Shown here piece after piece: positions 6,811-29,105 of a stretch of DNA of 37,612 nt. The notes below the pieces were generated by a model that worked only from the letters and a program-made list of their open reading frames with translations, had not been told where the DNA came from and searched no databases. Origin of the DNA: Planctomycetota bacterium (lineage in GTDB: Bacteria > Planctomycetota > Phycisphaerae > Phycisphaerales > SM1A02); contig QWPW01000030.1 in assembly GCA_003671025.1 (NCBI GenBank), positions 1-37,612 of the forward strand, written 5' to 3'. Within the stretch, counting starts at the first letter, position 1. Each line of letters begins with the position of its first letter. The translations under genes were made by a program, and so were the position numbers.

Positions 6811-6816
6811 ATCGTA
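6811..6816 (-). promoter_or_regulatory. Putative -10 box (TACGAT), leaderless start for 6804
   Basis: On the minus strand TACGAT ends six bases before the ATG, placing the expected transcription start at the first base of the codon. No Shine-Dalgarno sequence is present, and I see no convincing -35 box. Confidence 0.5.
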
Positions 6817-6875
6817 CGAATGTCGCTGATGCGCGTACGCATCGGTGCTTGGACGCGCATGCAGAGATTGACTCG

Positions 6876-6881
6876 TACACT
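6876..6881 (+). promoter_or_regulatory. Putative -10 box (TACACT), leaderless start for 6889
   Basis: TACACT ends seven bases before the ATG at 6889. This would give an mRNA beginning at or next to the start codon. It faces away from the 6811-6816 box, so the two genes appear to share an 84-bp divergent promoter region. Confidence 0.5.
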
Positions 6882-6888
6882 CGATGTC

Positions 6889-7647
6889 ATGTCCACGGCC
6901 TCTTCCCATTCTGATCCGAGGCCACGACTTTCGGCGACTGTGATGCCGCTCACCAGCGGCGCGAACGCGATGCCGTTACGCGAAGCATTCGCATGGCTCT
7001 CAAGTGCGGGCTACTCGGCCGTTCAACTGAGCGCGACCGATCCGCTCACGCGTCCGCGCGAGCTTTCGCGATCTGCGCGCAGCGATCTCGCCTCGGCGTT
7101 GACGCGCTCGGAACTGGTCTGTTCGGGCGTGGACTTCTTCATCCCGCCCGCGCACTTCCTCGACTCAGCGCAGCTCACTCGCGCCATGGAGTCGCTGCTC
7201 GCTGCCGTGGAATTCGCGGCGCAACTTTGCCGCGTTCCCGTCGTCGCAGCGATTCCCGTGGAGACCGCTGCCGATGTTGTCGCTGAAATCGCTGCCACCG
7301 CCGCGAAACTCGGAAGTGCGGTGCTCATCCCCGTGGCCAGCGCCGACAGTGCGTTGATTCCTGCGGGACTCGGCGCGTGCCTCGACTGCGCCGCCGCGCT
7401 TGGACTTGGACAGGAGCCGCACACGGTGGTCGCGACGCTGGGCAACCGTCTTGGAGGAGTGCGCGTGGTCGACCTCTTACGCAGCGGAATGCGCGGACCC
7501 ATTCACGAACCACGCGAATCACGCCTCGATGCGATGGCACTTCGCGCAGTGCTCGATGTCGCTAGTTTTCGCGGCATTCCCGTGATGGACGCGCGCCAGT
7601 GGCCAGACCCGCGCGCGGGATTAGCGCGATCGATCGAACGTTGGTGA
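6889..7647 (+). CDS. TIM-barrel protein of the xylose isomerase-like (AP endonuclease 2) superfamily
   Basis: The 252-residue product has the alternating strand/helix pattern of sugar phosphate isomerase/epimerase-like TIM barrels. It opens with a strand (LSATVMPL), then a helix (LREAFAWLSSAGYSAVQLSA), a pattern in which the first helix is followed by the GYxAVQL segment. Later strands include VPVVAAIPV, AVLIPVA and HTVVATLGN. The usual metal ligands (Glu, Asp, His) of xylose isomerases are not clear: there is no obvious ENH or EPH motif, so it may be non-catalytic or use other residues. The start was placed at ATG 6889 because it follows the TACACT box and gives a normal barrel start. A longer open frame upstream overlaps the divergent gene. 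Substrate unknown. Confidence 0.7.
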   Translation: MSTASSHSDPRPRLSATVMPLTSGANAMPLREAFAWLSSAGYSAVQLSATDPLTRPRELSRSARSDLASALTRSELVCSGVDFFIPPAHFLDSAQLTRAMESLLAAVEFAAQLCRVPVVAAIPVETAADVVAEIAATAAKLGSAVLIPVASADSALIPAGLGACLDCAAALGLGQEPHTVVATLGNRLGGVRVVDLLRSGMRGPIHEPRESRLDAMALRAVLDVASFRGIPVMDARQWPDPRAGLARSIERW

Positions 7648-7727
7648 GTGCAAAGAGCGAACTCGCGACGACCGACCTCGCAGCACTCGCTGCGTTCTGT
7701 GCAGAGAAAGTGCGCGGCGAATTGTCG

Positions 7728-8474
7728 TCAGTGTGGTCGCTGGCCAAACGCGAAGAGCGCGGGCCCGAGCGAGCTGGGGATGAGACGATGGGCGATGGCG
7801 CCAATTCGAAAGAGAACCGAACTGAACGCGAAGTAGTTTGGCTCTGATGTCCAGCCATACACCGCGACGTCAAACCCAGCGCGTCGCGCCGCGCGCTCAA
7901 TCGCCCACTTGGTGTTGCATCGATACAACGTCGGGAAGACATCTTTGTCTTCGCGGCCGGGCTGCACCCGTGAAATCACTGCGGTGTGAAACCGGTTTGG
8001 AATACACGCGGAGATGAGTCCAGGGTATCCCAAGAGATTGGTGGTATTGATCGCGAACATCCCGCCGGGCTTGAGCACTCGGTGCAATTCAGCGAAGAAT
8101 TCATGGGGATTTGGCACGTGTTCGAGCACCGTGCGCGCCATCGCGACGTCGATTGAGGCCGATTCGATTGGCCACGCCTTTCCCAGTGTGAGCAGGCGAA
8201 ACTCATCGAGGCTCGGATTCTCCACACCAACCTCGTCGACGTCGATGCCGATGACCTTGCGCGTTGGACCGCGGAGGTCGTGCAAGCGAGCTCGATACGA
8301 AGAACCCGTGTCGTCGAATGCAACCCCGCGGCCACACCCGATGTCGAGGCATGTTCCGTGGGTGGGAAGAATGGATTGGACGCGGGCTTGGAACTCCACG
8401 CTGCCATCGCAGCGCGAATAGCCGCCGTACATCGCTTCTGGGTACACACTTTGCGTGAGGTTCTTTGGTTTCAT
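7728..8474 (-). CDS. Class I SAM-dependent methyltransferase
   Basis: The 248-residue product has the Rossmann methyltransferase motifs in order: motif I CLDIGCGRGVAF (about residue 42-53), motif II acidic strand end IGIDVDEVG, motif IV-like SIDVAMARTVLEHVPNP, and the post-motif LKPGGMFAINTTN. This places it among the Methyltransf_11-like enzymes that act on small molecules, lipids or glycans. The C-terminal part has an aromatic, hydrophobic stretch (FAFSSVLFRIGAIAHRLI) that may contact a membrane or lipid substrate. The ATG at 8474 has an AGGA ribosome site about eight bases upstream. It converges with the TIM-barrel gene across 80 bases. Substrate unknown. Confidence 0.85.
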   Translation of the reverse strand: MKPKNLTQSVYPEAMYGGYSRCDGSVEFQARVQSILPTHGTCLDIGCGRGVAFDDTGSSYRARLHDLRGPTRKVIGIDVDEVGVENPSLDEFRLLTLGKAWPIESASIDVAMARTVLEHVPNPHEFFAELHRVLKPGGMFAINTTNLLGYPGLISACIPNRFHTAVISRVQPGREDKDVFPTLYRCNTKWAIERAARRAGFDVAVYGWTSEPNYFAFSSVLFRIGAIAHRLIPSSLGPALFAFGQRPH

Positions 8475-8888
8475 TGGGAATCCTGTCGGCCGTTCATCGG
8501 TTCGCAGGCGCGCTGTGTCTGAACTGAATCATTCAAATCGTGAGCGAATGCGCAGAGAGGGAGAAAGGCCAATCTGCGCGAAGGCCGCGGATGCGCGTCC
8601 TCAGGTACCGATCACGTACTGATCAGGTACTGATGCGACGCGATGGCGATCACGACCTTCGAGGCCGCCCGTGCCCGGCGGCGAGTGGTGCGTGGCGCGC
8701 TCAGGCTCGAGGCAATGCTGCGGTAAAGCCTGGTTGCTCGATGGACGGGTGAACGAGAGAACGCAATGAGCGCGATCCCCGAAACAGATTGAATAAATCA
8801 GAGCGCAAAGCGTGCGATGTTCGGCGCAACCGATCGCGCAACGCTTGTTACGATTCGCCCTTCACTCCTGAACCCAAAGGTCGAAACT
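8475..8888. other. Intergenic region, divergent, with a short 11-bp repeat
   Basis: This 414-base spacer separates the methyltransferase from the SPOR-like gene. It should contain both promoters. At 8604-8636 there are three imperfect 11-bp tandem units of a GGTACTGATCA type. A TGtTACGAT sequence at 8846-8854 is a plausible extended -10 for the rightward gene. A 70-codon frame at 8540-8752 has no ribosome site or recognisable content, so I do not call it. Confidence 0.55.
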
Positions 8889-9608
8889 ATGGCCCGTCGC
8901 GGTGGACCCGCTCTCTATGAATTGCTTGGAAACCGTCGCGATACTGCGACAGGTGGTTCGCTGTCGCAGCGCACCCATGCGCCGCGCGCAGTGCTTGATC
9001 CTTCTCAAGTGCGATCGTTGGTGACGTTCATCATCGTGCTTGTTCTCGTGATCGGCGCGTATCTCGTGGGCGTGTCTCGCGGTCAACGACTCGGTCGCGA
9101 AGGCATCGCACAAGAGCGCGCGGAGGAAATGCGTTTGCTCGAAGAGGGCCGACCCTCGGGGAGCGGCGTTGGTCAGCCGAACAACACAGTCAGTGCCGAC
9201 AGTGCCGGCAGTGGCATTTCGCTGCCGATTGCGTCCGAAAACGCGCTCGCTCGCGTGACCAATGACGCGACGACTAGCGCGACGACTGGCGCGCTCGCAC
9301 CCACCGCCATCGGCGTCGATCCACGGGAAGCGGGGAAGAACTATTTCGTCCTCGGCTCCGTGCTCGCGGAGAACGCATCGCGCCTCGTCGCGTTCTGTCG
9401 CGAGCGTGGACTTGACGCATGGGTAGTCCCTGATCACAATGGTCGGCTTCGCGAAATCATCGTGCTCCCCGGCTACGCCTCGGGCGAACGAGAGAGTGTG
9501 GTGATCAGCGAACTCGAAGCGCGTATCCGCAAAGTCGGCGTCCTCTTCAAGGCGTCGGGTGGCGGTACTGACTTCGGGGACAAGTATCCCAAGCTGTTCA
9601 AAGGTTGA
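8889..9608 (+). CDS. Single-span membrane protein with C-terminal SPOR-like domain
   Basis: The 239-residue protein starts with a polar head of about 40 residues (MARRGGPALYELL), followed by one strong helix near 45-64 (VTFIIVLVLVIGAYLVG). A charged helix (about 65-95), a Ser/Thr/Ala-rich linker, and a carboxyl domain of about 80 residues from NYFVLGSVL follow. The domain's two strand-helix repeats, with FVLGS...RLVAFCRERGLDAWVV, look like a SPOR-type peptidoglycan-binding fold, though the match is from pattern only. It would sit in the inner membrane with the domain in the periplasm. An AAAGG ribosome site lies eight bases before the ATG. The upstream longer frame was dropped. It lies immediately before the PVC small basic protein. 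Confidence 0.72.
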   Translation: MARRGGPALYELLGNRRDTATGGSLSQRTHAPRAVLDPSQVRSLVTFIIVLVLVIGAYLVGVSRGQRLGREGIAQERAEEMRLLEEGRPSGSGVGQPNNTVSADSAGSGISLPIASENALARVTNDATTSATTGALAPTAIGVDPREAGKNYFVLGSVLAENASRLVAFCRERGLDAWVVPDHNGRLREIIVLPGYASGERESVVISELEARIRKVGVLFKASGGGTDFGDKYPKLFKG

Positions 9609-9656
9609 ACAACCTCACCAGAGGTTGTTTATGACTGAGGCGAAACAATGCCTCAG
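9608..9656 (+). terminator. Two adjacent stem-loops after the SPOR-like gene
   Basis: Stem one pairs AACAACCTC (9608-9616) with GAGGTTGTT (9621-9629) around an ACCA loop, starting at the stop codon. Stem two pairs CTGAGGC (9635-9641) with GCCTCAG (9650-9656). Neither has a strong T-run, so this could be a weak terminator or an mRNA processing or stability element between the two genes. Confidence 0.45.
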
Positions 9657-9792
9657 CACAATCGACCCGGTGCACGTCTCGCTCTCAACAGCGATGCGCG
9701 TGTCGAGTTCACAAGACAAGTTGCAGTCGAGGGCTTCCCAGCTCGTCGCTCGCACGGTGTTTCCATCCGCGTTTCTCTCGAAAGTTTCCACA

Positions 9793-10071
9793 ATGAGCAT
9801 CCATCCAAGTCTGAAGACCAAGTCCGGCGCCCTCAATCAGCATCGCAACGTGCTCACTCGTGACGAGCGCGTCGCGAAGCTCACCGAGAGCGAGCGCTTC
9901 GTCGGTGGCGCATCCTCTCCGCTTGGTTTGCCCAAAGTGTTGAGCATCAAGATCACCGCCGGCAAGAAGCCTAAGAAGGAACCAGGTGCTGAAGCCGCCG
10001 ACGCGAAGAAGGGCGACGCCAAGAAGGGCGCAGCCAAGCCCGCAGCCAAGGCCGACGCGAAGAAGAAGTAA
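9793..10071 (+). CDS. PVC-superphylum signature small basic protein
   Basis: The 92-residue product begins MSIHPSLKTKSGALNQHRNV, followed by LTRDERVAKL and, near residue 46, PLGLPKVLSIKI. These features match the small basic protein family described as a signature of the PVC superphylum (Planctomycetes, Verrucomicrobia, Chlamydiae), thought to bind nucleic acid or ribosomes. Here it carries an additional tail of about 35 residues rich in Lys, Ala and Asp/Glu (KKG/AKK units), longer than the usual family length of about 60-70. The start is set by the family motif; the longer frame upstream is spurious. No strong ribosome site is visible. It is probably monocistronic, followed by a hairpin at 10291. 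The exact function is not established. Confidence 0.88.
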   Translation: MSIHPSLKTKSGALNQHRNVLTRDERVAKLTESERFVGGASSPLGLPKVLSIKITAGKKPKKEPGAEAADAKKGDAKKGAAKPAAKADAKKK

Positions 10072-10237
10072 ACCGCGCACTCGGTGCACTCCGCTCGGGT
10101 CGAGGGCAACAACAATCCGCTCTCCTTCGAGCGCGGTTGCCGAGGTCCTGCGGCATCGAGACGAGTTTCCACGCGAGGCCTCTCGCGGTCGACTCGACTC
10201 GCGTGCATCGCAGTCAGTGCGATGCAGTCACCGCTGT

Positions 10238-10278
10238 GCATGTTCAACGCATGTTCAACGCATGTTCAACGCATGTTC
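10238..10278. repeat. 11-bp tandem repeat, three copies plus partial
   Basis: GCATGTTCAAC occurs perfectly at 10238-10248, 10249-10259 and 10260-10270, followed by an eight-base partial copy (10271-10278). It lies just upstream of a terminator-like hairpin. Confidence 0.95.
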
Positions 10279-10290
10279 TGCAATACTGCA

Positions 10291-10316
10291 ACGCCTCCGA
10301 CATTTGTCGGAGGCGT
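10291..10316 (+). terminator. Stem-loop, probable terminator
   Basis: ACGCCTCCGACA pairs with TGTCGGAGGCGT around a very short loop, giving about 10-11 stable GC-rich base pairs. The following T-run is short (TTTGCATTGG), so termination would be modest. It probably ends the small basic protein transcript. Confidence 0.6.
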
Positions 10317-10384
10317 TTGCATTGGTCAAGCACTCATGAAGGGTGCGTTTCGCGCGCTCGACTGGCACCACGCAGGATTTTTTG

Positions 10385-11608
10385 ATGCACCCCCCGACTT
10401 CGACTCATTCTCCATCTGCGACATCGAGTCACACGACAACAGCGGGGGCACCACTTGATGTTGGAAACTTGTTGTCGCGACGCGCGCGATCGATCGACGC
10501 GAGTGGGATTCGCAAGGTGTTTGATCTCGCGGCGCATCTGAAGGATCCGATCAATCTCTCGATCGGACAGCCAGACTTTCCGGTGCCCGATGTGCTCAAA
10601 GACGCGGCAATTCGCGCGATTCAAGACAACCGCAACGGATACACGCCCACCCAAGGATGTCCCGAACTGCTCGGCGCAATCTGGAAACGCCTCGGCAGCG
10701 AAGTGGGTTGGAGTCTCGACGCGCAGCAAGGCACCAGCGCGATTGTGACCAGCGGAACCAGCGGCGGCTTGGTGCTGGGCATGATGTGTTTGCTCGACAC
10801 GGATGACGAGGCCATCGTGCCTGATCCGTACTTCGTGATGTATCCGCAGCTCGCGGCGCTCACGGGCGGCAAGATCGTCTTGTGCGACACCTATCCTGAT
10901 TTTCGCATGACGGCCGCGCGCATCGAGCCGCTGATCACGCCGCGCACCAAGGCGGTGTTGATCAACAGTCCCGGCAATCCCACCGGCGTCGTGCTTTCGG
11001 ATGACGAGTTGCGTGACATCGTCGATCTCTGTCGTGCGCGCAACATCATGTTGATCTCGGATGAGATCTACGACGAATTTACCTTTCGCGCTTTTCGTGA
11101 AGAGGGGCGTTTCCCCACACCTGCGCGATTCTCCAAGGATTGTCTGCTCATTCGCGGCTTCGGTAAGACGTATGGCTGCACCGGTTGGCGATTGGGCTAC
11201 GTCGCGGGGCCGCACGAACTCGTGCAGTCGATCGCGAAGTTGCAGCAGTACACCTACGTATGCGCGCCGAGCATGGCGCAGTACGCCGCGGCGCATGCGT
11301 TTGAAATCGACATGCAGCCATGGGTCGATCGATTCGAACAACGACGCGACAGCGTGTTGGCGGCGTTTGACGGACTGACCAAGGTCACTGTTCCCGGCGG
11401 CGCGTTCTACGCGTTTGTCGAAGTACCTTCGTCGCTCGGCTTGACCGCGACGCAATTCGTCGAGAAGGCCATCGAGCGAAACGTCCTGATCATTCCCGGC
11501 AAAGTGTTCTCCACGCGAGACACGCACTTCCGCCTTTCGTTCGCAGCGAAAGAAGAGACTCTCGCGCGCGGACTCGAGGTCTTGCGCAACATCATGCAAG
11601 GCAAGTGA
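10385..11608 (+). CDS. Class I/II pyridoxal-phosphate aminotransferase (aspartate aminotransferase family)
   Basis: The 407-residue product shows the fold-type I aminotransferase motifs: NLSIGQPDF (about 57-65), GYTPTQG (85-91), SPGNPTG (195-201, substrate/PLP Asn), SDEIYDEF (225-232, PLP-pairing Asp and Tyr) and GFGKTYGCTGWRLGY (258-272) with the Schiff-base Lys near 261 and the Arg that binds the PLP phosphate near 269. The usual SFSK is GFGK here. The carboxyl end has the FRLSFA segment with the carboxylate-binding Arg. The reaction is likely transfer of an amino group between an amino acid and 2-oxoglutarate; the amino acid is not evident. ATG 10385 has an AGGA ribosome site eight bases before; an earlier GTG gives a poor extension. 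It stands alone. Confidence 0.9.
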   Translation: MHPPTSTHSPSATSSHTTTAGAPLDVGNLLSRRARSIDASGIRKVFDLAAHLKDPINLSIGQPDFPVPDVLKDAAIRAIQDNRNGYTPTQGCPELLGAIWKRLGSEVGWSLDAQQGTSAIVTSGTSGGLVLGMMCLLDTDDEAIVPDPYFVMYPQLAALTGGKIVLCDTYPDFRMTAARIEPLITPRTKAVLINSPGNPTGVVLSDDELRDIVDLCRARNIMLISDEIYDEFTFRAFREEGRFPTPARFSKDCLLIRGFGKTYGCTGWRLGYVAGPHELVQSIAKLQQYTYVCAPSMAQYAAAHAFEIDMQPWVDRFEQRRDSVLAAFDGLTKVTVPGGAFYAFVEVPSSLGLTATQFVEKAIERNVLIIPGKVFSTRDTHFRLSFAAKEETLARGLEVLRNIMQGK

Positions 11609-11696
11609 GTCTGCAGAAGTGAGTGCAGAGTTGGTGTCGTGAATTCGCGCGTTGCAGTCCACGCAAGGACGCGCGACGCTCGAGTGTTCACCGCAC

Positions 11697-11736
11697 AAAT
11701 AAAACCGCCGTCTGAATCAGAGATCCAGAGCGGCGG
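11697..11736 (-). terminator. Orphan minus-strand terminator
   Basis: On the minus strand CCGCCG-C-TCTG pairs with CAGA-CGGCGG around an 11-base loop, followed by TTTTATTT (11704-11697). The shape is a normal Rho-independent terminator. The nearest minus-strand gene already has its own terminator about 260 bases upstream, so it is unclear which transcript ends here. Confidence 0.6.
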
Positions 11737-11988
11737 CGGGTGGATGGCCAGAACTTTGAGGTCTTGGGGATTCGTTTGCGCGAACACTCGCGAACACCAG
11801 CGAACACCAGCGAACACCTTTGACACCCTCTCTATCCGTCCAACAATGATCCGAGTTCAGAAGAAGCCCCAAGTTCCGTCAGGATCGACCGCCTTTCTTG
11901 CGCGGACTTAGGTTTGGGCGGGCGCGGCTTGGTAACTCAAAGTTGCGAACGTCTGCGCCGTTTGCGATCTCGCGCCGGGCGCATCACC

Positions 11989-12023
11989 AAAAAAGACGAC
12001 GCGCCGACCTTGCGGGGCGCGTC
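11989..12023 (-). terminator. Rho-independent terminator of the lipoprotein gene
   Basis: Minus strand: GACGCGCC (12023-12016) pairs perfectly with GGCGCGTC (12005-11998) around a ten-base loop and is followed, after two or three bases, by a run of six T (11994-11989). It lies about 80 bases after the lipoprotein stop. Confidence 0.78.
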
Positions 12024-12060
12024 GAAATGGTGTGCGTTTGAGAGACGCTCCTCAGTGAAT

Positions 12061-12096
12061 CACAGCCTGAAACACAGCCTGAAACACTGCCTGAAG
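12061..12096. repeat. 12-bp tandem repeat, three copies
   Basis: CACAGCCTGAAA is perfect at 12061-12072 and 12073-12084, with a third copy carrying two changes at 12085-12096. It sits in the 3' untranslated region of the lipoprotein gene, between its stop and its terminator. Confidence 0.93.
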
Positions 12097-12104
12097 ACCG
12101 GGGA

Positions 12105-12308
12105 TTAGTTTCCCGCGGGCTTCGATGGTGGCGGGGGCGCATCGGACTTGTTCGAGCCGAGCTTGATTCCCGAGCCTGGCGGATCGACTGGCTTGGCGTC
12201 TGGCTGACGGACCTGATCCGCAGGGATCGTGGTCGTGTCGCCGCCGCCGTCGCAACCAGTGAGGAGCACGCATGCGCTAAGGCATCCGAGTGCGAGGAAA
12301 GTCTTCAT
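12105..12308 (-). CDS. Small lipoprotein
   Basis: This 67-residue product has a lipoprotein signal: MKTFLALGCLSACVLLTGC, with LTGC as the lipobox and Cys19 as the lipidation site. The mature part has only about 49 residues. It is low complexity, with DGGGD, many Pro and Asp/Lys, and SDAPPPPSKP near the end, so it looks like a flexible envelope tether. The ATG follows an AAAGGA ribosome site by about six bases. A clear terminator follows at 11989-12023, so the gene is probably monocistronic. I recognise no family and cannot assign a role. Confidence 0.8.
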   Translation of the reverse strand: MKTFLALGCLSACVLLTGCDGGGDTTTIPADQVRQPDAKPVDPPGSGIKLGSNKSDAPPPPSKPAGN

Positions 12309-12535
12309 ATGCAGTCCTTTCGAGAGAGTTTCCCAACTGGAGAACCACCTTTACTGGGATGGAGCGCCAACTGGGCGGAATTGATCGAAACACGTTGATC
12401 GGAATCATGGACGCTGGAACCTGAAAATCTCAAGCTCCGCACCAGCGTATTGGACGGGACGAGCGCGTCGAGGTCAAGTCGCGCGTAGTCGAGGGCGCCT
12501 GTCCGACGCGTCAAAGAGTGCATCTGCCCGTGAGG
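12309..12535. other. Upstream region of the lipoprotein gene
   Basis: These 227 bases should contain the lipoprotein promoter. A TTGATCG motif appears twice within about 20 bases, near 12380-12400. I see no terminator for the metallophosphatase that ends on its far side, and no gene. Confidence 0.4.
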
Positions 12536-14922: not shown

Positions 14923-15447
14923 TCACTGGGCATCGAGCGTACGCGTCGGTGAACAGGATGGTGAACGCAAGGCATCGCGAATCTCATCACCAATGGCGCA
15001 GGCGCGACGCGAGCTGAGATCAACCATCGCCCAACGACTCGAGGCTCGCGCGATGACGCGTTCATCGCATGTGCGCAGCACGGTGGTTGCGCGCGTCAAA
15101 CTGGTTCGTCCGATCGACTCGACCCACGTCGCGAGGATGATGCTCTCGCCGGCAAATGCTTCCGCGAGGTAATCGATTTCGTGACGAGCCACGAACCACA
15201 TGCGACCTTGTTGCGCCAACGATTCGCGCGCCGCGCCGACTGCGTCACCGTGCGCACTCGCGACAAGATCAATCCATGAAACGATGGCGATGTTGTTCGC
15301 GTGAGGGACCAACGCGCTGGTCTCGGATGGCGTGATGGTGTGGCTCAACGCAAAGATTCCCTCGTGGCTCGAGGCCAGGCAGGTGGGCAACGCAGCGCGA
15401 GCAACAACGCGAAAGGAATCCAACTCCATCGCCTCAAAGCGTAGCAT
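14923..15447 (-). CDS. Acyl-CoA thioesterase (4HBT hotdog family)
   Basis: The 174-residue product has the hotdog-fold 4-hydroxybenzoyl-CoA thioesterase pattern: the helix motif HANNIAIVSWIDLVA (H-x-NN-x5-WID), then FVARHEIDYLAEAFAGESI, the strand TWVESIGRTSLTRATTVLR and a terminal ASSRWAMVDLSSRR. It would hydrolyse an acyl-CoA or act on acyl-carrier substrates; substrate unknown. The ATG at 15447 lies six bases from the ATG of the divergent DUF971 gene; a second ATG at 15429 is also possible and gives a little more room. Neither has a clear ribosome site. The longer upstream frame lies on the opposite strand of the DUF971 gene and is not real. Confidence 0.82.
   Translation of the reverse strand: MLRFEAMELDSFRVVARAALPTCLASSHEGIFALSHTITPSETSALVPHANNIAIVSWIDLVASAHGDAVGAARESLAQQGRMWFVARHEIDYLAEAFAGESIILATWVESIGRTSLTRATTVLRTCDERVIARASSRWAMVDLSSRRACAIGDEIRDALRSPSCSPTRTLDAQ
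15442..15447 (+). promoter_or_regulatory. Putative -10 box (TAGCAT), leaderless start for 15454
   Basis: TAGCAT ends six bases before the ATG at 15454. It overlaps the first codon of the divergent thioesterase (if that starts at 15447). No ribosome site precedes 15454. Confidence 0.4.
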
Positions 15448-15453: not shown

Positions 15454-15795
15454 ATGAATTCGAATCCGCCGCGCGCGTTGCATATCGATCTCGATCGCGA
15501 GCGCGGACTCACGATCGAGTGGGACGATGGCGCTGCGTTTTTTCTGGCGGTTCCTGATCTGCGTCGGCTCTCGCCCTCGGCCGATGTGCGTGAATTGCGC
15601 GCGGAAATGGCGCGCAATCCCTTCACTGTGCTCCCAAACGCGCCAACCGCGGGACCACTGCGCATCGACGCGATCGAGCCCATCGGTCACTACGCGCTGC
15701 GCATTCGTTTTAGTGATGGTCACGACACGGGCATCTACACATGGAGCTACTTGCGCACGCTGTGTTCATCACATGGGAAGCCGCCGGTTGCCTGA
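15454..15795 (+). CDS. DUF971 domain protein
   Basis: The 113-residue product is a single DUF971 domain (also called gamma-butyrobetaine hydroxylase-like N-terminal domain). Hallmarks are the LTIEWDDG strand, the central PDLRRLSPSADVRELR helix region, the IDAIEPIGHYALRIRFSDGHDTGIYTW block and the final SYLRTL. The family is common in bacteria, often near iron-sulfur or heme genes, but its role is unsettled. The usual metal-binding cysteine pair of the eukaryotic form is not evident here. Start is the ATG after a TAGCAT -10-like box. It ends 42 bases before pyrF, and could be cotranscribed, although pyrF has its own -10-like box. Confidence 0.85.
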   Translation: MNSNPPRALHIDLDRERGLTIEWDDGAAFFLAVPDLRRLSPSADVRELRAEMARNPFTVLPNAPTAGPLRIDAIEPIGHYALRIRFSDGHDTGIYTWSYLRTLCSSHGKPPVA

Positions 15796-15818: not shown

Positions 15819-15824
15819 TACAAT
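15819..15824 (+). promoter_or_regulatory. Putative -10 box (TACAAT) of pyrF
   Basis: TACAAT matches the -10 consensus at five of six positions and ends 13 bases before the pyrF ATG, leaving a leader of only about seven bases. Confidence 0.55.
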
Positions 15825-15837: not shown

Positions 15838-16752
15838 ATGACTTCCTGCACTTCGCCGATGAGTTCGCCGCACGCCACCAGTTTTCACGCCGCAGATTTC
15901 TTGGTGCATCGCATTGAGGTCACCGGCGCGGCGACCTGTGTTGGACTCGATCCCGTCATCGAAAAGTTGCCTCGCGAACTTGTGCCGCGCGACAGCAACA
16001 ACGCCGCGGAGTGCGCGCAGAGCATCGAAACATTTTCCTGCGCCGTCATCGACGCAGTTGCTGCCGACACCGCGGCGGTGAAGATTCAGGCTGCATGTTT
16101 CGAACGCTACGGTCCCCTTGGTTACGCGGCGTTGTGGCGCGTGTTGGCGGCGGCGCGCGCGAGTGGTCTTGCTGTTGTGCTCGACTTCAAGCGTGGTGAC
16201 ATCGGTATCTCCGCCGAGCATTACGCAGCGAGCGCGCGCAGCAGTGGAGCGCACTGGACCACCATCAGTGCCTATCTCGGTGCCGACGGGATTCTGCCGT
16301 TTCTCGCGCAAGGCCACGGCGCGTTTGCACTGGTTCGCACCAGCAATCCATCGGGCGACGCGTTGCAAGCGCAAGTGTTGCAAGACGGAAGCACAGTGGC
16401 AGAACGCGTTGCCTCATTGGTCGATGAACTCGGTCGCGCATCGATTGGCGCGCGCGGGTTTTCCAATCTCGGCGCAGTCGTTGGCGCAACCAAGCGCGCA
16501 GAGATCGCTGCGCTGCGCGAACGAATGCCCGCGACAATTTTCTTGGTCCCAGGCTACGGCGCACAAGGTGGAACCGCTGACGATGTGCGCGCATGTTTCA
16601 CGGGTAACAGTCAAGGCGCGCTCATCACTGCGAGTCGCTCGGTGATTTATCCCAGTGGCGGTGCGAGTGCTGCGGGCGCCTCGTGGCAACAGCAGATTCG
16701 TGACGCCGCGCGCGTCTTCGCAGATGAGATTCGCGCCATCGCCCAAGGCTAA
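15838..16752 (+). CDS. pyrF: Orotidine 5'-phosphate decarboxylase, type 2
   Basis: This enzyme decarboxylates OMP to UMP, the last step of pyrimidine synthesis. The 304-residue product shows CVGLDPVIEKLP at the first strand, AAVKIQAACFERYG, the catalytic LDFKRGDIG motif (Asp-Lys-Asp array), ISAYLGADGI, ALVRTSNPSG, and the phosphate-binding FLVPGYGAQGG and LITASRSVIYP strands. This is the long type 2 form seen in many actinobacteria and mycobacteria, not the short E. coli type. ATG 15838 was used; an ATG at 15859 is also possible. No strong ribosome site is present. An ABC solute-binding protein gene follows after 36 bases. Confidence 0.95.
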   Translation: MTSCTSPMSSPHATSFHAADFLVHRIEVTGAATCVGLDPVIEKLPRELVPRDSNNAAECAQSIETFSCAVIDAVAADTAAVKIQAACFERYGPLGYAALWRVLAAARASGLAVVLDFKRGDIGISAEHYAASARSSGAHWTTISAYLGADGILPFLAQGHGAFALVRTSNPSGDALQAQVLQDGSTVAERVASLVDELGRASIGARGFSNLGAVVGATKRAEIAALRERMPATIFLVPGYGAQGGTADDVRACFTGNSQGALITASRSVIYPSGGASAAGASWQQQIRDAARVFADEIRAIAQG

Positions 16753-21711: not shown

Positions 21712-21731
21712 GCGCGTGACAGGTTGGCGCG

Positions 21732-21737: not shown

Positions 21738-21756
21738 GCGAGTCACGGAGATTGCT

Positions 21757-23157: not shown

Positions 23158-23178
23158 CGCTCGGATTATCCTGCGCTC

Positions 23179-26100
23179 ATGCATGATGGCGTAGCAGCGA
23201 GCACAGGGCACTCGGTCAGCCTTCCGCTGATGAAGCGCCCCGACGCACTGGACGCGTTGCGCGCGCGACTCTCGTCAGCATTGCGCGGCGTGGCTCGCGC
23301 CGACATTCGTTTTGGCCGTCACGACCGAATGCTCTACGCGACTGATGCGAGCATCTATCAAGTCGAGCCCATCGGCGTCGTGGTCCCACACACGGTGGAT
23401 GATGGCGCGAAGGTCGTCGCGTTTCTCGCGCAAGAAGGCGTCGCCATTCTTCCTCGCGGCGCAGGAACCGCGCTCGCTGGCCAAAGTGTGAACCGCGCGG
23501 TGGTTGTCGATTTCTCGCAGTATTGCCGAGGAATTCGCGCGATTGACCTCGAGGCACGACGCGCAATCGTTGAGCCTGGCGTCACTCTTGATCAACTCAA
23601 CGAAGCGCTCTCGCCGCATGGACTGATGTTTGGCCCCGATGTCGCGACGAGTTCGCACGCGACCATCGGCGGCATGGTGGGCAACAACTCTGCGGGCGCG
23701 CATTCGATTTTGTATGGACGCACGGTGGAGAATTTGCTCGCGCTCGAAGTTGTTTTTGCCGACGGCTCCGTGCATCGACTCGAAGAGGGAAGTTGCGATC
23801 GCGATCCGTCACAGCGTGCGCTGATGGAAGCGCTCGCCGCGATTGTGACGCCGATCGCCGATGAGATTCGCGCGCGGTTTCCCAAGCTTTTGCGTCATGT
23901 CGATGGATACAACCTCGACCTCTTGCTCGATCAATTGCAACGCTCGAGCGCGGGGACATTCGATCGCGTCAATCTCGCGCATCTCTTGTGCGGCAGTGAA
24001 GGAACTCTCGCGGCAACGCTTTCCATCGAAGTGAGTTTGGTGACCAAGCCGCGCGGTCGGGGACTGGCCATTTTGGGTTTCGCCAGTGTGGCGCAATCGC
24101 TGTCGCATCTTGCGGCGATTCTGGCGACCAAACCAGCGGCGGTTGAGTTGGTCGATGATGTGGTGATCGATGTCGCGCTGCGCAACACCGAGTATCGCCA
24201 GTACGTCGAGTTGATGCCGCAACCACGCGAGGGCTTGCTTGGTGCGGTGCTCTATGTCGAATACTTTTCGCACGCACAGAGTGATGCGGACAACGAACTT
24301 GAGTTGTCGCAACGATTCGCGGCCTTGCGCCAAGCGGTTCCCGATGTGGCGATGTCAACGTATCTCGGAGCGACTGAGCGTTTGAAGGCGTGGAAGTTGC
24401 GCAAGGCTGGTGAGCCGCTGTTGCACGGTGTGCCCGGTCTGCGCAAGCCCTTCACCTTTGTCGAGGACACCGCAGTCGATCCCGCGCTTTTGCCTGCATT
24501 TGTCGAGGAATTCCGCGCCATCGTCACGCGCCACGGCACAACGGCCGCGTACTACGCGCACGCTTCGGTGGGATGTCTGCACATCCGTCCGCTGGTGGCA
24601 ATTCATGAGAAGAGTGATCGCGCGATCATGGTGAGCATCGCGTGCGACATCGCGGATTTGGTTGCGCGCTACGGCGGCGCGCTCTCTGGTGAACATGGTG
24701 ATGGCCGCGTGCGCTCGCCGTTGTTGAGTCGCTACTTCGGTCAAACGATTTGCGACGCGTTGCGCGCGGTGAAGCGCGCATTTGACCCCAAGGGCATCTT
24801 CAATCCAGGCAACATCGTTGAGACCCAACCTCCCGAGGCGATCATCACCAACTTGCGCGTGGCGCCCGACGGCAACGACGCGCATGTGCCTGTAGGAGAA
24901 ACATATTTCTCCTACGCGCGCGAAAACGGATTTGGTCATGCAGTCGAAGCGTGCAACGGCGCTGGACTTTGTCGACGCATGTCGGGTGGCACCTCGATGT
25001 GTCCTTCGTATCGCGTGTTGCAAGATGAGCGACACGCGACGCGCGGTCGCGCCAACGCTTTGCGACTGGCTACTACGGGACAGCTCGGCGCGCAGGCGTG
25101 GAATGATCCCGAAACGATGGAGACGCTTGACCTTTGTCTCTCGTGTAAGGCGTGCAAGACGGAATGTCCTTCGAATGTCGACATCTCAAAGTTGAAGGCC
25201 GAGTACACCGCGCAACGCTACGCACGCACAGGGATTCCGTTGGCCGCGCGCGTGTTTGGAAATGTGCGCAAACTCAATCGCATCGGTTCGCGCTTTGCCA
25301 CGCTGGCAAATCTCTTCAACGCGAGTGGGTTGGGGAAATCGCTGGCAAGTGCGATGCTCGGAGTCGATGCCCGCCGCTCCATTCCAGAGTTTGGTGCCTC
25401 ACTTTTTAGCTGGTTTGCGCGGCGAGAAGCGCAATCGGCGCAGCGCAGCGTGATTCTCTTTGGCGATTGTTTTGCTGCGTACAACGAACCAGGCATCGGG
25501 CGCGCGGCCATCACGTTGCTCGAAGCGTTCGGCTACCGCGTGATCCTCGCCGATGTTGGATGCTGCGGACGAAGTTTGATTTCGACGGGGCTCCTCGCGC
25601 AAGCGCGCGACGAGATTGCGCGTGCGTCGGACGCGCTCACTTCGCTGCTCGAGTCGACGCACGCTGATGCAGTGCTCGTGCTTGAGCCTAGTTGCGCGAG
25701 CGCGCTGCGCGATGATTGGCTCGAGTTGCTTCCAGCGTTGCGCGATGACGCGATGCTTGCACGAGTTCGCGCACAACGGCAACATCTCGCTGCGCACACG
25801 TTTCTCGTCGAAGAGTTTCTCGACAGCCGTTGGGATGCGCACCCATTGCGTCCCGCAATTCCCGCGCAAGCCGATCGCGTGTTGCTGCACGGACATTGTC
25901 ATCAGAAGGCGCTGTGGGGCAACGAGAGTTCAGCGCGGTTTTTACGGCGATTGTTCGGTGATTCGCTGACCACACTCGACACAGGTTGCTGCGGAATGGC
26001 GGGCAGTTTCGGTTATGCCCAACATCGATACGACTTGTCCATGGCCATCGGCGAGGAACGACTTTTCCCCGCAGTGCGCGCTCATCCCAACGCAGTTGTG

Positions 26101-26199
26101 TGCGCACCCGGAACAAGTTGCCGTCACCAGATTCATGATGGCACGGAGCGCGAGGCGCTTCATCCAGTTGATCTTGCGGTGCGTGCGCTCTCGCTATGA
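23179..26199 (+). CDS. FAD-linked oxidase fused to Fe-S reductase (D-2-hydroxyglutarate dehydrogenase/YdiJ type)
   Basis: The 1006-residue protein fuses three parts. An FAD-binding PCMH domain (about residues 40-270) has PRGAGTALAGQS and GGMVGNNSAGAHSILYG. An FAD-oxidase C-terminal domain (about 270-540) has YYAHASVGCLHIRPL and LSGEHGDGRVRSPLL. An iron-sulfur part has CNGAGLCRR...MCPSYR and CLSCKACKTECPSNVD near residues 590-680. Two cysteine-rich (CCG) domains follow, with DVGCCGRS, GHCHQKAL and DTGCCGMAGSFGYA. This is the order of E. coli YdiJ (about 1018 residues), which oxidises D-2-hydroxyglutarate; glycolate or D-lactate oxidation by GlcD/F-like enzymes is the alternative. Electrons probably go to a quinone or flavoprotein. 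No lldR or glcC-type regulator is adjacent. Confidence 0.9.
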   Translation: MHDGVAASTGHSVSLPLMKRPDALDALRARLSSALRGVARADIRFGRHDRMLYATDASIYQVEPIGVVVPHTVDDGAKVVAFLAQEGVAILPRGAGTALAGQSVNRAVVVDFSQYCRGIRAIDLEARRAIVEPGVTLDQLNEALSPHGLMFGPDVATSSHATIGGMVGNNSAGAHSILYGRTVENLLALEVVFADGSVHRLEEGSCDRDPSQRALMEALAAIVTPIADEIRARFPKLLRHVDGYNLDLLLDQLQRSSAGTFDRVNLAHLLCGSEGTLAATLSIEVSLVTKPRGRGLAILGFASVAQSLSHLAAILATKPAAVELVDDVVIDVALRNTEYRQYVELMPQPREGLLGAVLYVEYFSHAQSDADNELELSQRFAALRQAVPDVAMSTYLGATERLKAWKLRKAGEPLLHGVPGLRKPFTFVEDTAVDPALLPAFVEEFRAIVTRHGTTAAYYAHASVGCLHIRPLVAIHEKSDRAIMVSIACDIADLVARYGGALSGEHGDGRVRSPLLSRYFGQTICDALRAVKRAFDPKGIFNPGNIVETQPPEAIITNLRVAPDGNDAHVPVGETYFSYARENGFGHAVEACNGAGLCRRMSGGTSMCPSYRVLQDERHATRGRANALRLATTGQLGAQAWNDPETMETLDLCLSCKACKTECPSNVDISKLKAEYTAQRYARTGIPLAARVFGNVRKLNRIGSRFATLANLFNASGLGKSLASAMLGVDARRSIPEFGASLFSWFARREAQSAQRSVILFGDCFAAYNEPGIGRAAITLLEAFGYRVILADVGCCGRSLISTGLLAQARDEIARASDALTSLLESTHADAVLVLEPSCASALRDDWLELLPALRDDAMLARVRAQRQHLAAHTFLVEEFLDSRWDAHPLRPAIPAQADRVLLHGHCHQKALWGNESSARFLRRLFGDSLTTLDTGCCGMAGSFGYAQHRYDLSMAIGEERLFPAVRAHPNAVVCAPGTSCRHQIHDGTEREALHPVDLAVRALSL

Positions 26200-26289
26200 C
26201 GAGGCGATGAGAGGCGAGTTGAGCCACACTCGCGATGGCCCGAAAGAGTTGCTCGCGCGCGTGAGCCCGGATGCGCACCAGTGATGTGC

Positions 26290-26295
26290 TAGACT
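26290..26295 (+). promoter_or_regulatory. Putative -10 box (TAGACT), leaderless start for 26303
   Basis: TAGACT, preceded by TGTGC, ends seven bases before the ATG. No ribosome site is present, so translation from the 5' end is likely. Confidence 0.5.
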
Positions 26296-26302
26296 CGCGC
26301 GC

Positions 26303-26785
26303 ATGACCGGTGCGACCCAACCCATCATCGATGAGAGCGCGCTCACCGACCTTTCGCAGGCGAGCATCCTGCTGGTTGACGACAATCAGCAAAACCTGGA
26401 ACTCATGCAGGCGTATCTCGAGTCGCTCCCGTGTCGGCTGCTCACCGCGCGCGATGGTCTCGAGGCGATCGAAGTCATTCAGCGCGAAAGACCTGATCTT
26501 GTATTACTCGACGTGATGATGCCCAAGATGTCGGGGTTTGAGGTGTGCCGCAAGGTTAAGAGTGATCCCGCGACGCGCGACATGGTGGTCATCATGGTGA
26601 CCGCGTTGCATGAGGTTGGCGATCACGAACGCGCCGTCGAGAGCGGCACCGACGACTTCCTTACTAAGCCCGTGAACAAACTCGAACTCTTGACTCGAGT
26701 GCGCAGTCTGCTGCGCGTCGCGCTGCTCAAACGCAAACTCACCGAACTGTTGGGGAACTCGCGCGGGACCGACGCGACGCTTTGA
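26303..26785 (+). CDS. Single-domain response regulator (receiver)
   Basis: The 160-residue product is a receiver domain with short tails. LLVDDNQQN has the acidic pair at 26-27, LVLLDVMMPKMSG has the phosphoacceptor Asp at 70, MVTAL has Thr at 100, and FLTKPVNKLELL has Lys at 122. The last 25 residues are a helix (LRVALLKRKLTELLG) without an output domain. It may signal by protein-protein contact like CheY/DivK or Spo0F. No histidine kinase is adjacent. The starting ATG is consistent with a leaderless mRNA from the TAGACT box; the longer frames in other phases are shadows. Confidence 0.93.
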   Translation: MTGATQPIIDESALTDLSQASILLVDDNQQNLELMQAYLESLPCRLLTARDGLEAIEVIQRERPDLVLLDVMMPKMSGFEVCRKVKSDPATRDMVVIMVTALHEVGDHERAVESGTDDFLTKPVNKLELLTRVRSLLRVALLKRKLTELLGNSRGTDATL

Positions 26786-26856
26786 CCTGCGTCCATCTGC
26801 GCCGACTTTCAAGCAATCGCCGCGAACAGCCGATCTGAAACCCACGGAGGCTTACC

Positions 26857-27054
26857 GTGGCAGAGAAGCATCACCTCATCGTTGAAATTCGCGAGCTCAA
26901 CCCATCGGCATCGCACGACTGGCTGAGCGCGTTTAGCGCGAGCGAATTGCTCGAGTATCTCGAGCATCTCCACACCTCGTTTGAACCAGCGACGGCAGCT
27001 CGTTGGGTACGCCGCAGCGATGCTCCAGCGTTCTCCATGCGCGAGTGCGCGTGA
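26857..27054 (+). CDS. 65-residue conserved-looking small protein, unknown function
   Basis: A GTG start preceded six bases away by a perfect GGAGG ribosome site gives a 65-residue product: MAEKHHLIVEIRELNP..., then a helix-rich stretch (SASELLEYLEHLH), ending in a mixed basic region. It is soluble and has no signal or recognised motif. The strong ribosome site, lack of overlap and position 71 bases after the receiver gene all support a real gene, possibly cotranscribed with it. It ends 28 bases before the scpA stop on the other strand. Family not recognised. Confidence 0.72.
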   Translation: MAEKHHLIVEIRELNPSASHDWLSAFSASELLEYLEHLHTSFEPATAARWVRRSDAPAFSMRECA

Positions 27055-27082
27055 GCGAAGACTGCGCGTGTCAGCTCGCCGC

Positions 27083-27922
27083 TTAGTTGTTTGATTCGGT
27101 ATTCGCGGTGGCGAAGGGCGCATCTGGCCCGCGCTCCACTGCAAGCGTGACCTCGATCTGATCATCGAGGTCATCCTGTTTCACATGGATGCGGCCTTGG
27201 CGCACCAATTCCAACAGCGCTAAGAAGAGACCGATGCGCTCGCTGTGCGTGCGTCCTTCGAACACCGTGGTCAAGTCCAATCGGTTGTGAGTGACGCGAC
27301 TCAGTCGATCAACCAAGTCATCTTGATGGAGTGCGATCGGCGTGTCGTCGTACTCGACGCGATGGTCGCCCACGCGCGTGAGATCGATCGAAGCGGCAAT
27401 CGTTTCAAACGCGGCGTAGAGGTCGCGCAGATCAAGATCTTCCAACTCAAACTCTTGCGCCGTCACTCCATCGACATCAAGGCCATCGTTCGCATTCTCT
27501 TGGGCATCAATCGAGCCAGGACGAACACGAGCGGGCGCGCGCTGGGCAAACTCGCGCCGACGCACATCGAGAATCTCCGCAGCGGTGCGAAACTTTTGAT
27601 AGGCCAAGAGTTGGCGAATGAGTTCGGAGCGGGGATCTTCGCCCGCGTTGGTGTTGGTCGCGTTGTCGGCTTCGTCGCCTGTTGCGGTGGGGGCGAGCGA
27701 ACGCGATTTGATCTCGACCAACGTCGCGGCCATCACCAGAAACTCGCCGGCGAGATCGATGTCGACAGAGGAGAGTCGACGCACATACTCGAGGTAGTGA
27801 TCGGTCAACGTGTGAATCGGAATGTCGTGGATGTCGACCTCTGCACGCCTCACGAGGAAGAGCAAAAGATCAAGTGGGCCCTGAAATACGGGCAAACGGA
27901 CGAGCCAATCGTTCTGCGACAT
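27083..27922 (-). CDS. scpA: Segregation and condensation protein A
   Basis: ScpA is the kleisin that bridges the SMC heads and pairs with ScpB in chromosome condensation. The 279-residue product begins VRLPVFQGPLDLLLFLVRRAEVDIHDIPI, the classic ScpA start, and includes LAGEFLVMAATLVEIKSR. Between the N-terminal SMC-binding helices and C-terminal winged helix there is a charged linker (about 95-135, TNTNAGED region). The C-terminal RIGLFLALLELVRQGRIHVKQ closes the fold. The start at ATG 27922 follows a TAGATT box by seven bases and lacks a ribosome site; a longer frame upstream runs through the divergent promoter and was dropped. scpB is not adjacent. Confidence 0.93.
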   Translation of the reverse strand: MSQNDWLVRLPVFQGPLDLLLFLVRRAEVDIHDIPIHTLTDHYLEYVRRLSSVDIDLAGEFLVMAATLVEIKSRSLAPTATGDEADNATNTNAGEDPRSELIRQLLAYQKFRTAAEILDVRRREFAQRAPARVRPGSIDAQENANDGLDVDGVTAQEFELEDLDLRDLYAAFETIAASIDLTRVGDHRVEYDDTPIALHQDDLVDRLSRVTHNRLDLTTVFEGRTHSERIGLFLALLELVRQGRIHVKQDDLDDQIEVTLAVERGPDAPFATANTESNN

Positions 27923-27929
27923 CGCACGC

Positions 27930-27935
27930 AATCTA
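27930..27935 (-). promoter_or_regulatory. Putative -10 box (TAGATT), leaderless start for scpA
   Basis: Minus strand TAGATT ends seven bases before the scpA ATG. TTGTCGACAA, a small palindrome just upstream (about 27947-27956), could be an operator but is not a clear -35 box. Confidence 0.5.
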
Positions 27936-27953
27936 CCACGCGCCGTTGTCGAC

Positions 27954-27999
27954 AATGTGCGATCAATGTGCGACCGATGCGTGATCGTGGTGCGTGATC
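27954..27999. repeat. Imperfect 11-bp tandem units in the scpA-kdsD spacer
   Basis: AATGTGCGATC, AATGTGCGACC, GATGCGTGATC and a 13-base variant ending GTGATC follow each other. The units are imperfect, so this may be a degraded repeat or clustered protein-binding sites in the divergent promoter region. Confidence 0.6.
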
Positions 28000-28051
28000 G
28001 AATGACTGAACTCAGCCTCGACGCGGCTTCGTCGACGCAAGACACCCGCCG

Positions 28052-28057
28052 TACACT
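28052..28057 (+). promoter_or_regulatory. Putative -10 box (TACACT), leaderless start for kdsD
   Basis: TACACT ends seven bases before the ATG at 28065. The same hexamer and spacing occur at 6876-6889. Confidence 0.5.
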
Positions 28058-28064
28058 GCCGCGC

Positions 28065-29105
28065 ATGCCTGAGAAACAACACTCGGAACCTGCAACGACG
28101 GACCCGCATGACGCCGCGATTGAGCGCGCCTTTTTGCGCGAAGTACTCATCACCGAAGCGGGCGCAGTGAGCGCGTTTGCGCAGCGGGTGGGCAGTGGCG
28201 TCGAGACGGGAATTCATCGCGCGATTGACTTGCTCGAAGCGTGTCGCGGTCACGTGGTGGTTTCGGGCATGGGAAAGTCCGGGCTCATCGGTGCCAAGAT
28301 TTCCGCCACGCTTTCGAGTCTGGGACAGCCTTCGCACTTCGTGCATCCAGCCGAAGCGGTGCATGGCGACCTCGGAAGTATTCGTGCAGATGATGTGGTG
28401 CTCTTGCTCAGTTGGTCGGGCGAAACGCAAGAAGTGGTTGCGCTCGCTTCGATTCTCAAGGCCGACAACATTCCTACCGTGGGGCTTTCAAGCAAGGCGA
28501 AATCAAGTCTCGCGCGCGCGTGTCGTGCGCATGTGGATCTTGGAGATCTCACCGAAGCGTGCCCGCTCAATCTCGCTCCCACGGCATCGACCACCCTCAC
28601 TCTGGCAGTGGGCGACGCGCTTGCATTGGGCCTGGCGCAGCGACGCAACTTTGGCAAAGACGATTTCCACAAGCATCATCCCGGCGGCATGCTTGGCGCA
28701 GGATTGCGTCCTGTCACTGAAGTGCTGCGGTTTCGCGTGGGAAAAAATCTCGCCGCTGTTTCCGACACCAGCAGTGTGCGCGATGCGTTGCGTGCCGCAG
28801 GTGAAGGTCGACGCGCAGGCGCGATCGTGTTGGTTGATGCACTGGGCCGACTCAGCGGAATCTTCACCGATGGAGATTTGCGTCGGCACGTGAACTCTGG
28901 ATCACTCGCGGTCCTCGATGCATCGATCGCCACCGTCATGACTCGTCATCCCGCGACACTCTCCACAGATTCACTGGTGCGAGACGCGGTGCAGATGATT
29001 CAAGAGCGACGACTCGACGAGATTCCCGTGGTCGATCACGATGGCAAGCCAGTTGGGCTCGTCGATGTGCAGGACTTGATCGCGATGCGCATCGTGTGCG
29101 AGTGA
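28065..29105 (+). CDS. kdsD: Arabinose-5-phosphate isomerase (KdsD/KpsF/GutQ family)
   Basis: The enzyme interconverts ribulose-5-phosphate and arabinose-5-phosphate, the first step of Kdo synthesis for lipopolysaccharide. The 346-residue product has an SIS domain: VVVSGMGKSGLIGAKISATLSSLG, FVHPAEAVHGDLG and LLLSWSGETQEV, with PLNLAPTASTTL and FHKHHPGGMLG, the family signature. A CBS pair follows (from about 225 to the end), with GIFTDGDLRRHV and LDEIPVVDHDGK. The ATG at 28065 fits the leaderless -10 box; earlier ATG 28002 is in frame and would add 21 residues. It is convergent with cysNC, only three bases apart, leaving no room for a terminator between them. Confidence 0.93.
   Translation: MPEKQHSEPATTDPHDAAIERAFLREVLITEAGAVSAFAQRVGSGVETGIHRAIDLLEACRGHVVVSGMGKSGLIGAKISATLSSLGQPSHFVHPAEAVHGDLGSIRADDVVLLLSWSGETQEVVALASILKADNIPTVGLSSKAKSSLARACRAHVDLGDLTEACPLNLAPTASTTLTLAVGDALALGLAQRRNFGKDDFHKHHPGGMLGAGLRPVTEVLRFRVGKNLAAVSDTSSVRDALRAAGEGRRAGAIVLVDALGRLSGIFTDGDLRRHVNSGSLAVLDASIATVMTRHPATLSTDSLVRDAVQMIQERRLDEIPVVDHDGKPVGLVDVQDLIAMRIVCE

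What the first reader, a model, noticed from the sequence alone, without database searches (positions are those of the whole stretch)
6811..28065. Repeated TAnnnT box 6-7 bases before start codons: leaderless mRNAs
Six starts lacking a ribosome site have a -10-like hexamer exactly six or seven bases before the start codon: TACGAT-6 (6804, minus), TACACT-7 (6889), TAGCAT-6 (15454), TAGACT-7 (26303), TAGATT-7 (27922, minus) and TACACT-7 (28065). A -10 box normally ends about six bases before the transcription start, so these mRNAs would begin at the start codon. With about 20 % A and 20 % T each, I estimate a chance match at these two offsets of roughly 0.016 per start, or about 0.5 in 30 starts. 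Genes with good ribosome sites (10385, 16789, 19696, 21757, 26857) do not show this spacing. Start choice was partly guided by the pattern, so the count is slightly biased.
Basis: partly seen in the sequence, partly recalled or inferred. Interest (0 to 1): 0.65.

Follow-up and report, generated by a model that had tools for sequence, protein, structure and literature searches.

The report
Leaderless genes in a Phycisphaerales bacterium
In this planctomycete bacterium many genes have their promoter box so close to the start codon that the messenger RNA must begin at or next to the start codon itself, and the same tight spacing is kept in related species although the surrounding DNA has changed completely.

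Summary
It is not chance. In 837,612 bp of the same genome, with starts chosen blind to upstream sequence, TANNNT lies 6 or 7 bases before the start in 61 of 531 genes (expected about 3.5). Without gene calling, TACNCT-N6/7-ATG occurs 128 times in the assembly, against 7 at gap 4-5, 42 at gap 8-9 and 21 at gap 18-19. All 16 genomes of the genus show the peak, 5- to 20-fold. The eight window genes keep the box in 71 of 99 congener homologues, the other 19 genes in 2 of 179, while flanks are randomised. In 11 congeners the divergent scpA/kpsF start codons are 52-68 bp apart. Best explanation: -10 boxes driving leaderless or near-leaderless mRNAs. The mechanism is known from Actinobacteria and Deinococcus-Thermus; I found no report of it for Phycisphaerales. 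No transcript 5' end was seen.

The parts
6811..6816 (-). -10 box TACGAT, gap 6 to ATG at 6804 (gene 6169-6804, no Pfam match)
   Evidence: TANNNT-6/7 before a start in 13 of 14 congener homologues, with a shorter N-terminus there; none of 12 in the stricter count
6876..6881 (+). -10 box TACACT, gap 7 to ATG at 6889 (gene 6889-7647, weak AP_endonuc_2/TIM-barrel match)
   Evidence: gap 6/7 in 3 of 14 congeners; read by eye, TACACT is visible in 12 of 14 printed regions, 7-9 nt before the first start codon in 7, 11-12 nt in 2, unclear in 3
   Evidence: 7 of 8 congeners, 6 of 8 in the stricter count
15442..15447 (+). -10 box TAGCAT, gap 6 to ATG at 15454 (GBBH-like gene 15454-15795)
   Evidence: 10 of 11 congeners, 9 of 11 in the stricter count
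15819..15824 (+). -10 box TACAAT, gap 13 to ATG at 15838 (OMP decarboxylase gene 15838-16752): short leader of about 6 nt; TACAAT or TACACT at gap 7-9 in 6 of 11 congeners printed
   Evidence: read by eye
   Evidence: 9 of 14 homologues; in 4 of the 5 misses the matched piece starts beyond residue 500, so the start was not examined, the fifth (G010) is a true miss
26290..26295 (+). -10 box TAGACT preceded by TGC, gap 7 to ATG at 26303 (response regulator 26303-26785)
   Evidence: TANNNT-6/7 in 14 of 14 congeners
27930..27935 (-). -10 box TAGATT, gap 7 to ATG at 27922 (scpA 27083-27922)
   Evidence: 12 of 12 congeners at gap 7 or 8; 5 of 12 at gap 6-7
28052..28057 (+). -10 box TACACT, gap 7 to ATG at 28065 (kpsF/SIS-CBS gene 28065-29105)
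   Evidence: the same TACACT at gap 6 in 11 of 11 congeners whose start was held; 10 of 12, the misses being a truncated locus (G009) and G002, which has it
27923..28064 (.). divergent promoter region scpA/kpsF, 142 bp here, 52-68 bp in 11 congeners, one -10 box next to each start codon

Best explanation
The TANNNT hexamers are -10 elements read by the housekeeping sigma-70-type RNA polymerase. Transcription starts 7 or 8 bases after the hexamer (spacing recalled from general knowledge of bacterial promoters), which is the A (or G) of the start codon, so the mRNA is leaderless; in a minority it begins a few bases earlier. The ribosome then has to start on the 5'-terminal AUG (known from other bacteria; not tested). 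The genome uses two start modes: leaderless, commoner at heads of transcription units, and Shine-Dalgarno, commoner for genes inside tight gene strings. Shown here: the box, its spacing, its conservation, its exclusion from SD genes, and the absence of a detectable -35. Inferred: promoter function, the transcription start and the mode of ribosome binding.
For: Blind-start histogram: gap 6 = 35 and gap 7 = 26 of 531 genes, mean of gaps 14-49 1.75 per position; congener G014 25 of 240, background 0.69 per position. Whole-assembly counts of TACNCT before ATG, own genome: gap 4-5 7, gap 6-7 128, gap 8-9 42, gap 18-19 21; sums over the 16 genomes of the genus, own included: 193, 1771, 723, 236. Reciprocal-best orthologues with G014: 70 pairs of at least 50% identity; 15 have the box in the own genome, 9 of these share it at the aligned start, with 4-10 of 27 upstream bases identical (chance level); of the other 55 only 1 has it in G014. 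Five of the nine are window genes. Window genes: 71 of 99 against 2 of 179. SD-like sites at 2 of 91 congener starts of box genes against 77 of 165 of others. By start codon: ATG 47 of 290, GTG 14 of 150, TTG 0 of 91. C is the commonest base just before the start (54% at gap 6, 59% at gap 7). Divergent start codons 52-68 bp apart in 11 congeners. Position class (496 of 532 genes could be classed): box 28 of 170 divergent and 5 of 96 tight same-strand; SD-like 20 of 170 and 37 of 96.
Against: No RNA data. No -35 element was found in 104 high-confidence cases, so the promoter would rest on -10 alone or on features not seen. Of the 15 own-box orthologues, 5 have no box in G014 and 1 has it at another start. 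For 6889 the distance drifts to 7-12 nt or is unclear in congeners, and 2 of 14 printed regions show no TACACT. A stricter re-count found no box at 6804 minus in 12 congeners, because the homologous start lies about 30 codons further in. The 12-base 16S 3' end was not found in the own assembly (0 hits; 12 of 15 genomes have it), so the anti-SD of this species itself is untested. Outside the genus the signal is much weaker (samples of five other genomes gave 5 of 178, 3 of 95, 3 of 91, 0 of 62 and 3 of 79).
Confidence: 0.93

Rival explanations
1. Very short leaders (1-6 nt) as the rule rather than truly leaderless mRNAs: the polymerase starts a few bases upstream of the start codon. (Overlaps with the best explanation, which allows this for a minority.)
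For: Shoulder at gap 8-9 (42 in the own genome, 723 in 16 genomes); 6889 and 15838 show longer gaps in the window or in congeners; scpA has gap 8 in 4 of 11 congeners.
Against: The peak is at gap 6-7 (128 own), the distance at which a -10 box would place +1 on the A of ATG; gap 4-5 falls to 7.
Confidence: 0.2
2. The hexamer is a translation signal (AU-rich or S1-type enhancer, or a non-SD ribosome site), not a promoter.
For: It lies at the usual place of a ribosome site. PMC5397173 (passages read) says AT bias at about -20 to -10 could be leaderless mRNA or S1.
Against: Only T1, A2 and T6 (fixed by the search) and C at positions 3 and 5 stand out, in GC-rich surroundings, which is no AU-rich tract; scpA/kpsF start codons 52-68 bp apart leave little room for separate promoters and leaders; the box is commoner at divergent heads than inside tight gene strings, where a translation signal would be needed too.
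Confidence: 0.04
3. Chance plus biased start choice.
Against: Blind starts, gene-free pattern counts and congener homologues all show it.
Confidence: 0.005
4. Operator sites of a widespread regulator placed at start codons.
For: The hexamer middle tends to be conserved gene by gene (TACACT at kpsF in 11 of 11 congeners).
Against: Genes of unrelated function, several different middles, no partner motif in position-by-position counts (palindromes were not tested); -10 boxes would still be needed elsewhere in 52-68 bp.
Confidence: 0.02

Closest known systems
TA-like (TANNNT) leaderless genes of bacteria, as in Actinobacteria and Deinococcus-Thermus (Zheng et al. 2011, PMC3160421; passages and section 6 read)
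   Same: TANNNT about 12 bp before the start, middle three bases weak in a high-GC genome, mixed with SD genes
   Different: The passages and Table 2 that I read do not name Planctomycetes (a pooled row 'Other Bacteria', 8 of 20 genomes, may include some); about 11% of genes here by blind starts (61 of 531), against averages of 19.2% and 39.4% there
-10-motif adjacent to ORFs in Deinococcus (PMC12340547; outline and Results part 1 of 3 read)
   Same: Box 6-7 bp before the ORF, TACACT the most frequent form there and here, GGAG sites as the second motif, reporter-tested there as a promoter
   Different: Nearly one-third of D. radiodurans genes against about one in nine here; another phylum; no experiment here
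Leaderless transcription predicted by GeneMarkS-2 in 21.6% of bacterial species (as told in PMC9581028; passages read; the original paper is not held)
   Same: Promoter box next to start codons in genomes that also use SD sites
   Different: Which phyla are included beyond those named in the passages was not seen; planctomycetes may be among them
Non-SD genes of Planctomycetes (PMC5397173; passages read)
   Same: The one planctomycete examined had few SD genes and a bias ascribed to leaderless mRNA and/or S1
   Different: No -10 box at gene level and no congener comparison in the passages read

Membership tests
TANNNT-type leaderless genes of bacteria | TANNNT enriched at about -12/-13 from the start codon genome-wide | tested here: met
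   sample of 26% of the genome; whole assembly, sub-form TACNCT with ATG only
TANNNT-type leaderless genes of bacteria | No Shine-Dalgarno site in front of these starts | tested here: met
   SD-like at 2 of 91 congener starts; 12% of 104 against 28% of 686; distant-position controls 6-12% in the three sets
TANNNT-type leaderless genes of bacteria | Box and spacing kept between orthologues of related species | tested here: met
   9 of 15 against 1 of 55; 71 of 99 against 2 of 179; exceptions 6889 and 6804 told in the report
TANNNT-type leaderless genes of bacteria | Commoner at heads of transcription units than inside operons | tested here: met
   28 of 170 divergent against 5 of 96 tight same-strand
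TANNNT-type leaderless genes of bacteria | Mapped transcription start at the start codon | not testable with these tools
   no RNA data on hand
TANNNT-type leaderless genes of bacteria | Translation of the leaderless message from the 5'-terminal AUG | not testable with these tools
   needs ribosome profiling or in vitro translation
sigma-70-type promoter with -35 and -10 | -35 hexamer 16-19 bp upstream of the -10 box | tested here: not met
   no clear -35 in 107 (own, any candidate start), 40 (G014, any candidate start) or 104 (high-confidence) cases; TTG alone is slightly raised at spacing 14 (6 of 107) and 17 (4 of 107); filed as -10-only

The most novel reading that the evidence does not exclude
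This Phycisphaerales genus has independently expanded -10-only, leaderless expression to a bulk mode of gene expression, converging on the same TACACT box as Deinococcus. It lets divergent gene pairs share about 55-65 bp with little or no room for leaders, and the level of each gene may be tuned by its own conserved hexamer middle. Within Planctomycetota the mode varies strongly between lineages (from no enrichment to about 20-fold), so its gain and loss could be followed inside one phylum.
Probability: 0.45. Interest if true: 0.6.

Novelty: new member of a known kind. Interest (0 to 1): 0.42.

Why it matters
Leaderless expression changes how genes are found (gene callers that look for SD sites would misplace such starts), how promoters are recognised in metagenome-assembled genomes, and how translation starts in a phylum for which my one search found no dRNA-seq paper. 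A genus with a strong signal next to relatives with a weak one is a natural test of how the leaderless mode spreads and what it does to regulatory DNA.

Tried and rejected
Chance and biased start choice were tested and rejected. A -35 partner was sought as TTG, TTGA and TTGAC at spacings 8-29 and as 4-mers in the region upstream of the box; nothing convincing stood out. Samples of 62-178 genes from five other genomes and pooled named contigs were too small to rank lineages, so counts over whole genomes were used instead: 80 of the 96 handles then known (left out: G079 and G081-G095). The reversed-pattern control printed by the tool (own genome 49 against 128) was not used for ratios because its letters differ; gap 18-19 was used. 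Rows dropped before counts: genes open at the left edge of a stretch (from then on), one gene without 60 bases in front, TTG starts and in the any-candidate counts, homologues whose match began beyond residue 45 or near a locus end; truncated homologues were kept and count as misses. The taxon name below order was not settled: the nearest named kpsF hits are an unnamed bacterium and Phycisphaerae/Phycisphaerales MAGs. Literature: 8 of 10 searches used. The GeneMarkS-2 paper is not held.
Full report
What was checked. All six hexamers are in the sequence at the stated places and gaps. The window is a whole contig of a 3.25-Mb, 68-contig genome. Its kpsF is nearest to an unnamed bacterium (68%) and to Phycisphaerae and Phycisphaerales MAGs of the Planctomycetota (63% and 58%). 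Fifteen congeneric genomes are held.

Is it more than chance? I took 800 kb of the same genome in stretches and, with the window (837,612 bp in all), called genes with a codon-context model that sees nothing upstream of the start. Of 531 usable starts (532 genes), TANNNT lies at gap 6 in 35 and at gap 7 in 26; the mean over gaps 14-49 is 1.75. In-frame internal ATGs show 4 and 1 of 2,343 (on the first 437,612 bp). Starts with the box by codon are ATG 47 of 290, GTG 14 of 150 and TTG 0 of 91. A congener sampled for 400 kb gives 25 of 240.

A test without gene calling. TACNCT followed by ATG was counted on both strands of whole assemblies. Own genome: 7 at gap 4-5, 128 at gap 6-7, 42 at gap 8-9, 21 at gap 18-19. 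Sums over the 16 genomes of the genus, own included: 193, 1771, 723 and 236. The sharp lower edge and the upper shoulder are what a transcription start limited by the start codon would give. Enrichment of gap 6-7 over gap 18-19 is 5- to 20-fold in all 16 genomes of the genus, 1.3-4.1 in 9 others of the family, 0.9-3.5 in 16 others of the order, 1.1 in one of another order of the class, and 0.7-4.6 in 38 others of the phylum; 16, 2, 2, 0 and 5 of these pass a one-sided binomial p < 0.001/80. Only one sub-form of the box, with ATG, was counted, so weak lineages may use other forms.

Comparative test. Between the own genome and G014, 70 reciprocal-best pairs of at least 50% identity were found; 15 have a box start in the own genome: 9 of them share it at the aligned start, 5 have none in G014 and 1 has one at another start. 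Of the other 55 pairs one has it in G014 only. In the nine, the 27 bases further upstream are identical at 4-10 positions, which is chance; five of the nine are window genes. In the window, the eight box genes keep a TANNNT-6/7 start in 71 of 99 congener homologues, the other 19 genes in 2 of 179 (truncated homologues count as misses). With gap 8 allowed, scpA has it in 12 of 12; kpsF has TACACT at gap 6 in 11 of 11 whose start was held. The middle of the hexamer tends to be kept gene by gene: TACACT at kpsF, TATCCT at the FAD oxidase (TATTCT in one), TAGCAT or TACGAT at the GBBH-like gene. Exceptions: 6889, where TACACT is seen in 12 of 14 printed regions, 7-9 nt before the first start codon in 7, 11-12 nt in 2 and unclear in 3; and 6804, where the own protein has about 30 extra N-terminal residues and a stricter count found nothing in 12. 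A ninth gene, 15838, has the box at gap 13 here and at gap 7-9 in 6 of 11 congeners.

Two start modes. SD-like sites stand at 2 of 91 congener starts of box genes and at 77 of 165 of the other genes, some of whose starts are surely wrong. Over three sample sets the share is 12% of 104 box genes and 28% of 686 others, with distant-position controls of 6-12%. By position (496 of 532 genes classed), box starts are 28 of 170 divergent genes, 22 of 177 same-strand genes with more than 60 nt in front, 5 of 53 with 21-60 nt and 5 of 96 with 20 nt or less; SD-like sites are 20, 32, 11 and 37 of the same.

Anatomy. In 104 high-confidence cases the consensus is about G-T-A-C-N-C-T followed by G or C, a GC-rich gap, C just before the start, and no -35. 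In the scpA/kpsF pair 52-68 bp separate the two start codons in 11 congeners (142 bp here), each with its own box, the boxes 27-42 bp apart (116 here). Two ordinary leaders with ribosome sites would hardly fit; the polymerases would compete for the same DNA (inference).

How it works. Most likely a -10-only sigma-70-type promoter whose start is the start codon, giving mRNA without a leader that the ribosome starts on from its 5'-terminal AUG. The DNA part is shown; promoter function and translation are inferred. Compared with the literature, this is the TANNNT leaderless class of Zheng et al. (PMC3160421), and its commonest form, TACACT, is also the commonest in D. radiodurans, where reporters showed promoter function (PMC12340547). 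For planctomycetes I saw only a hint from one species (PMC5397173) and, for Phycisphaerae, a row in an anti-SD table (PMC10783764), in searches; the library is partial, hits were judged from listings and passages, and GeneMarkS-2's genome classes were not seen (PMC9581028 passages).

Verdict. It is a new, strong case of a known kind, not a new kind of system.

Noticed in passing
window 6169-6804: The own protein is about 30 residues longer at its N-terminus than 13 congener homologues, although both are preceded by a TANNNT-6 box and ATG; either an insertion after the start or a start that moved together with its box.
   Followed up: partly
window 29109-32611: A run resembling sulfate assimilation genes by Pfam: EF-Tu-type GTPase fused to APS kinase and a PAPS-reductase-family protein; with an inositol-monophosphatase-family gene at 32787-33821 and a citrate-type transporter with TrkA-C domains at 33826-35616.
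   Followed up: no
genomes G053, G059, G069, G071, G077 (same phylum, other families): Five unnamed planctomycete genomes outside the order also show significant TACNCT-6/7-ATG enrichment (2.1- to 4.6-fold), while others (G057, G067, G074) show none.
   Followed up: no
G000 whole assembly: The 12-base 16S 3' end was not found in the own assembly, nor in G005 and G008, though 12 of 15 genomes searched have it; possibly the rRNA operon is missing from these assemblies.
   Followed up: no
window 26287-26295: The response-regulator promoter keeps TGC just before TAGACT/TAGAAT/TATTCT in 13 of 14 congeners (TGT in G014), like an extended -10 element.
   Followed up: no
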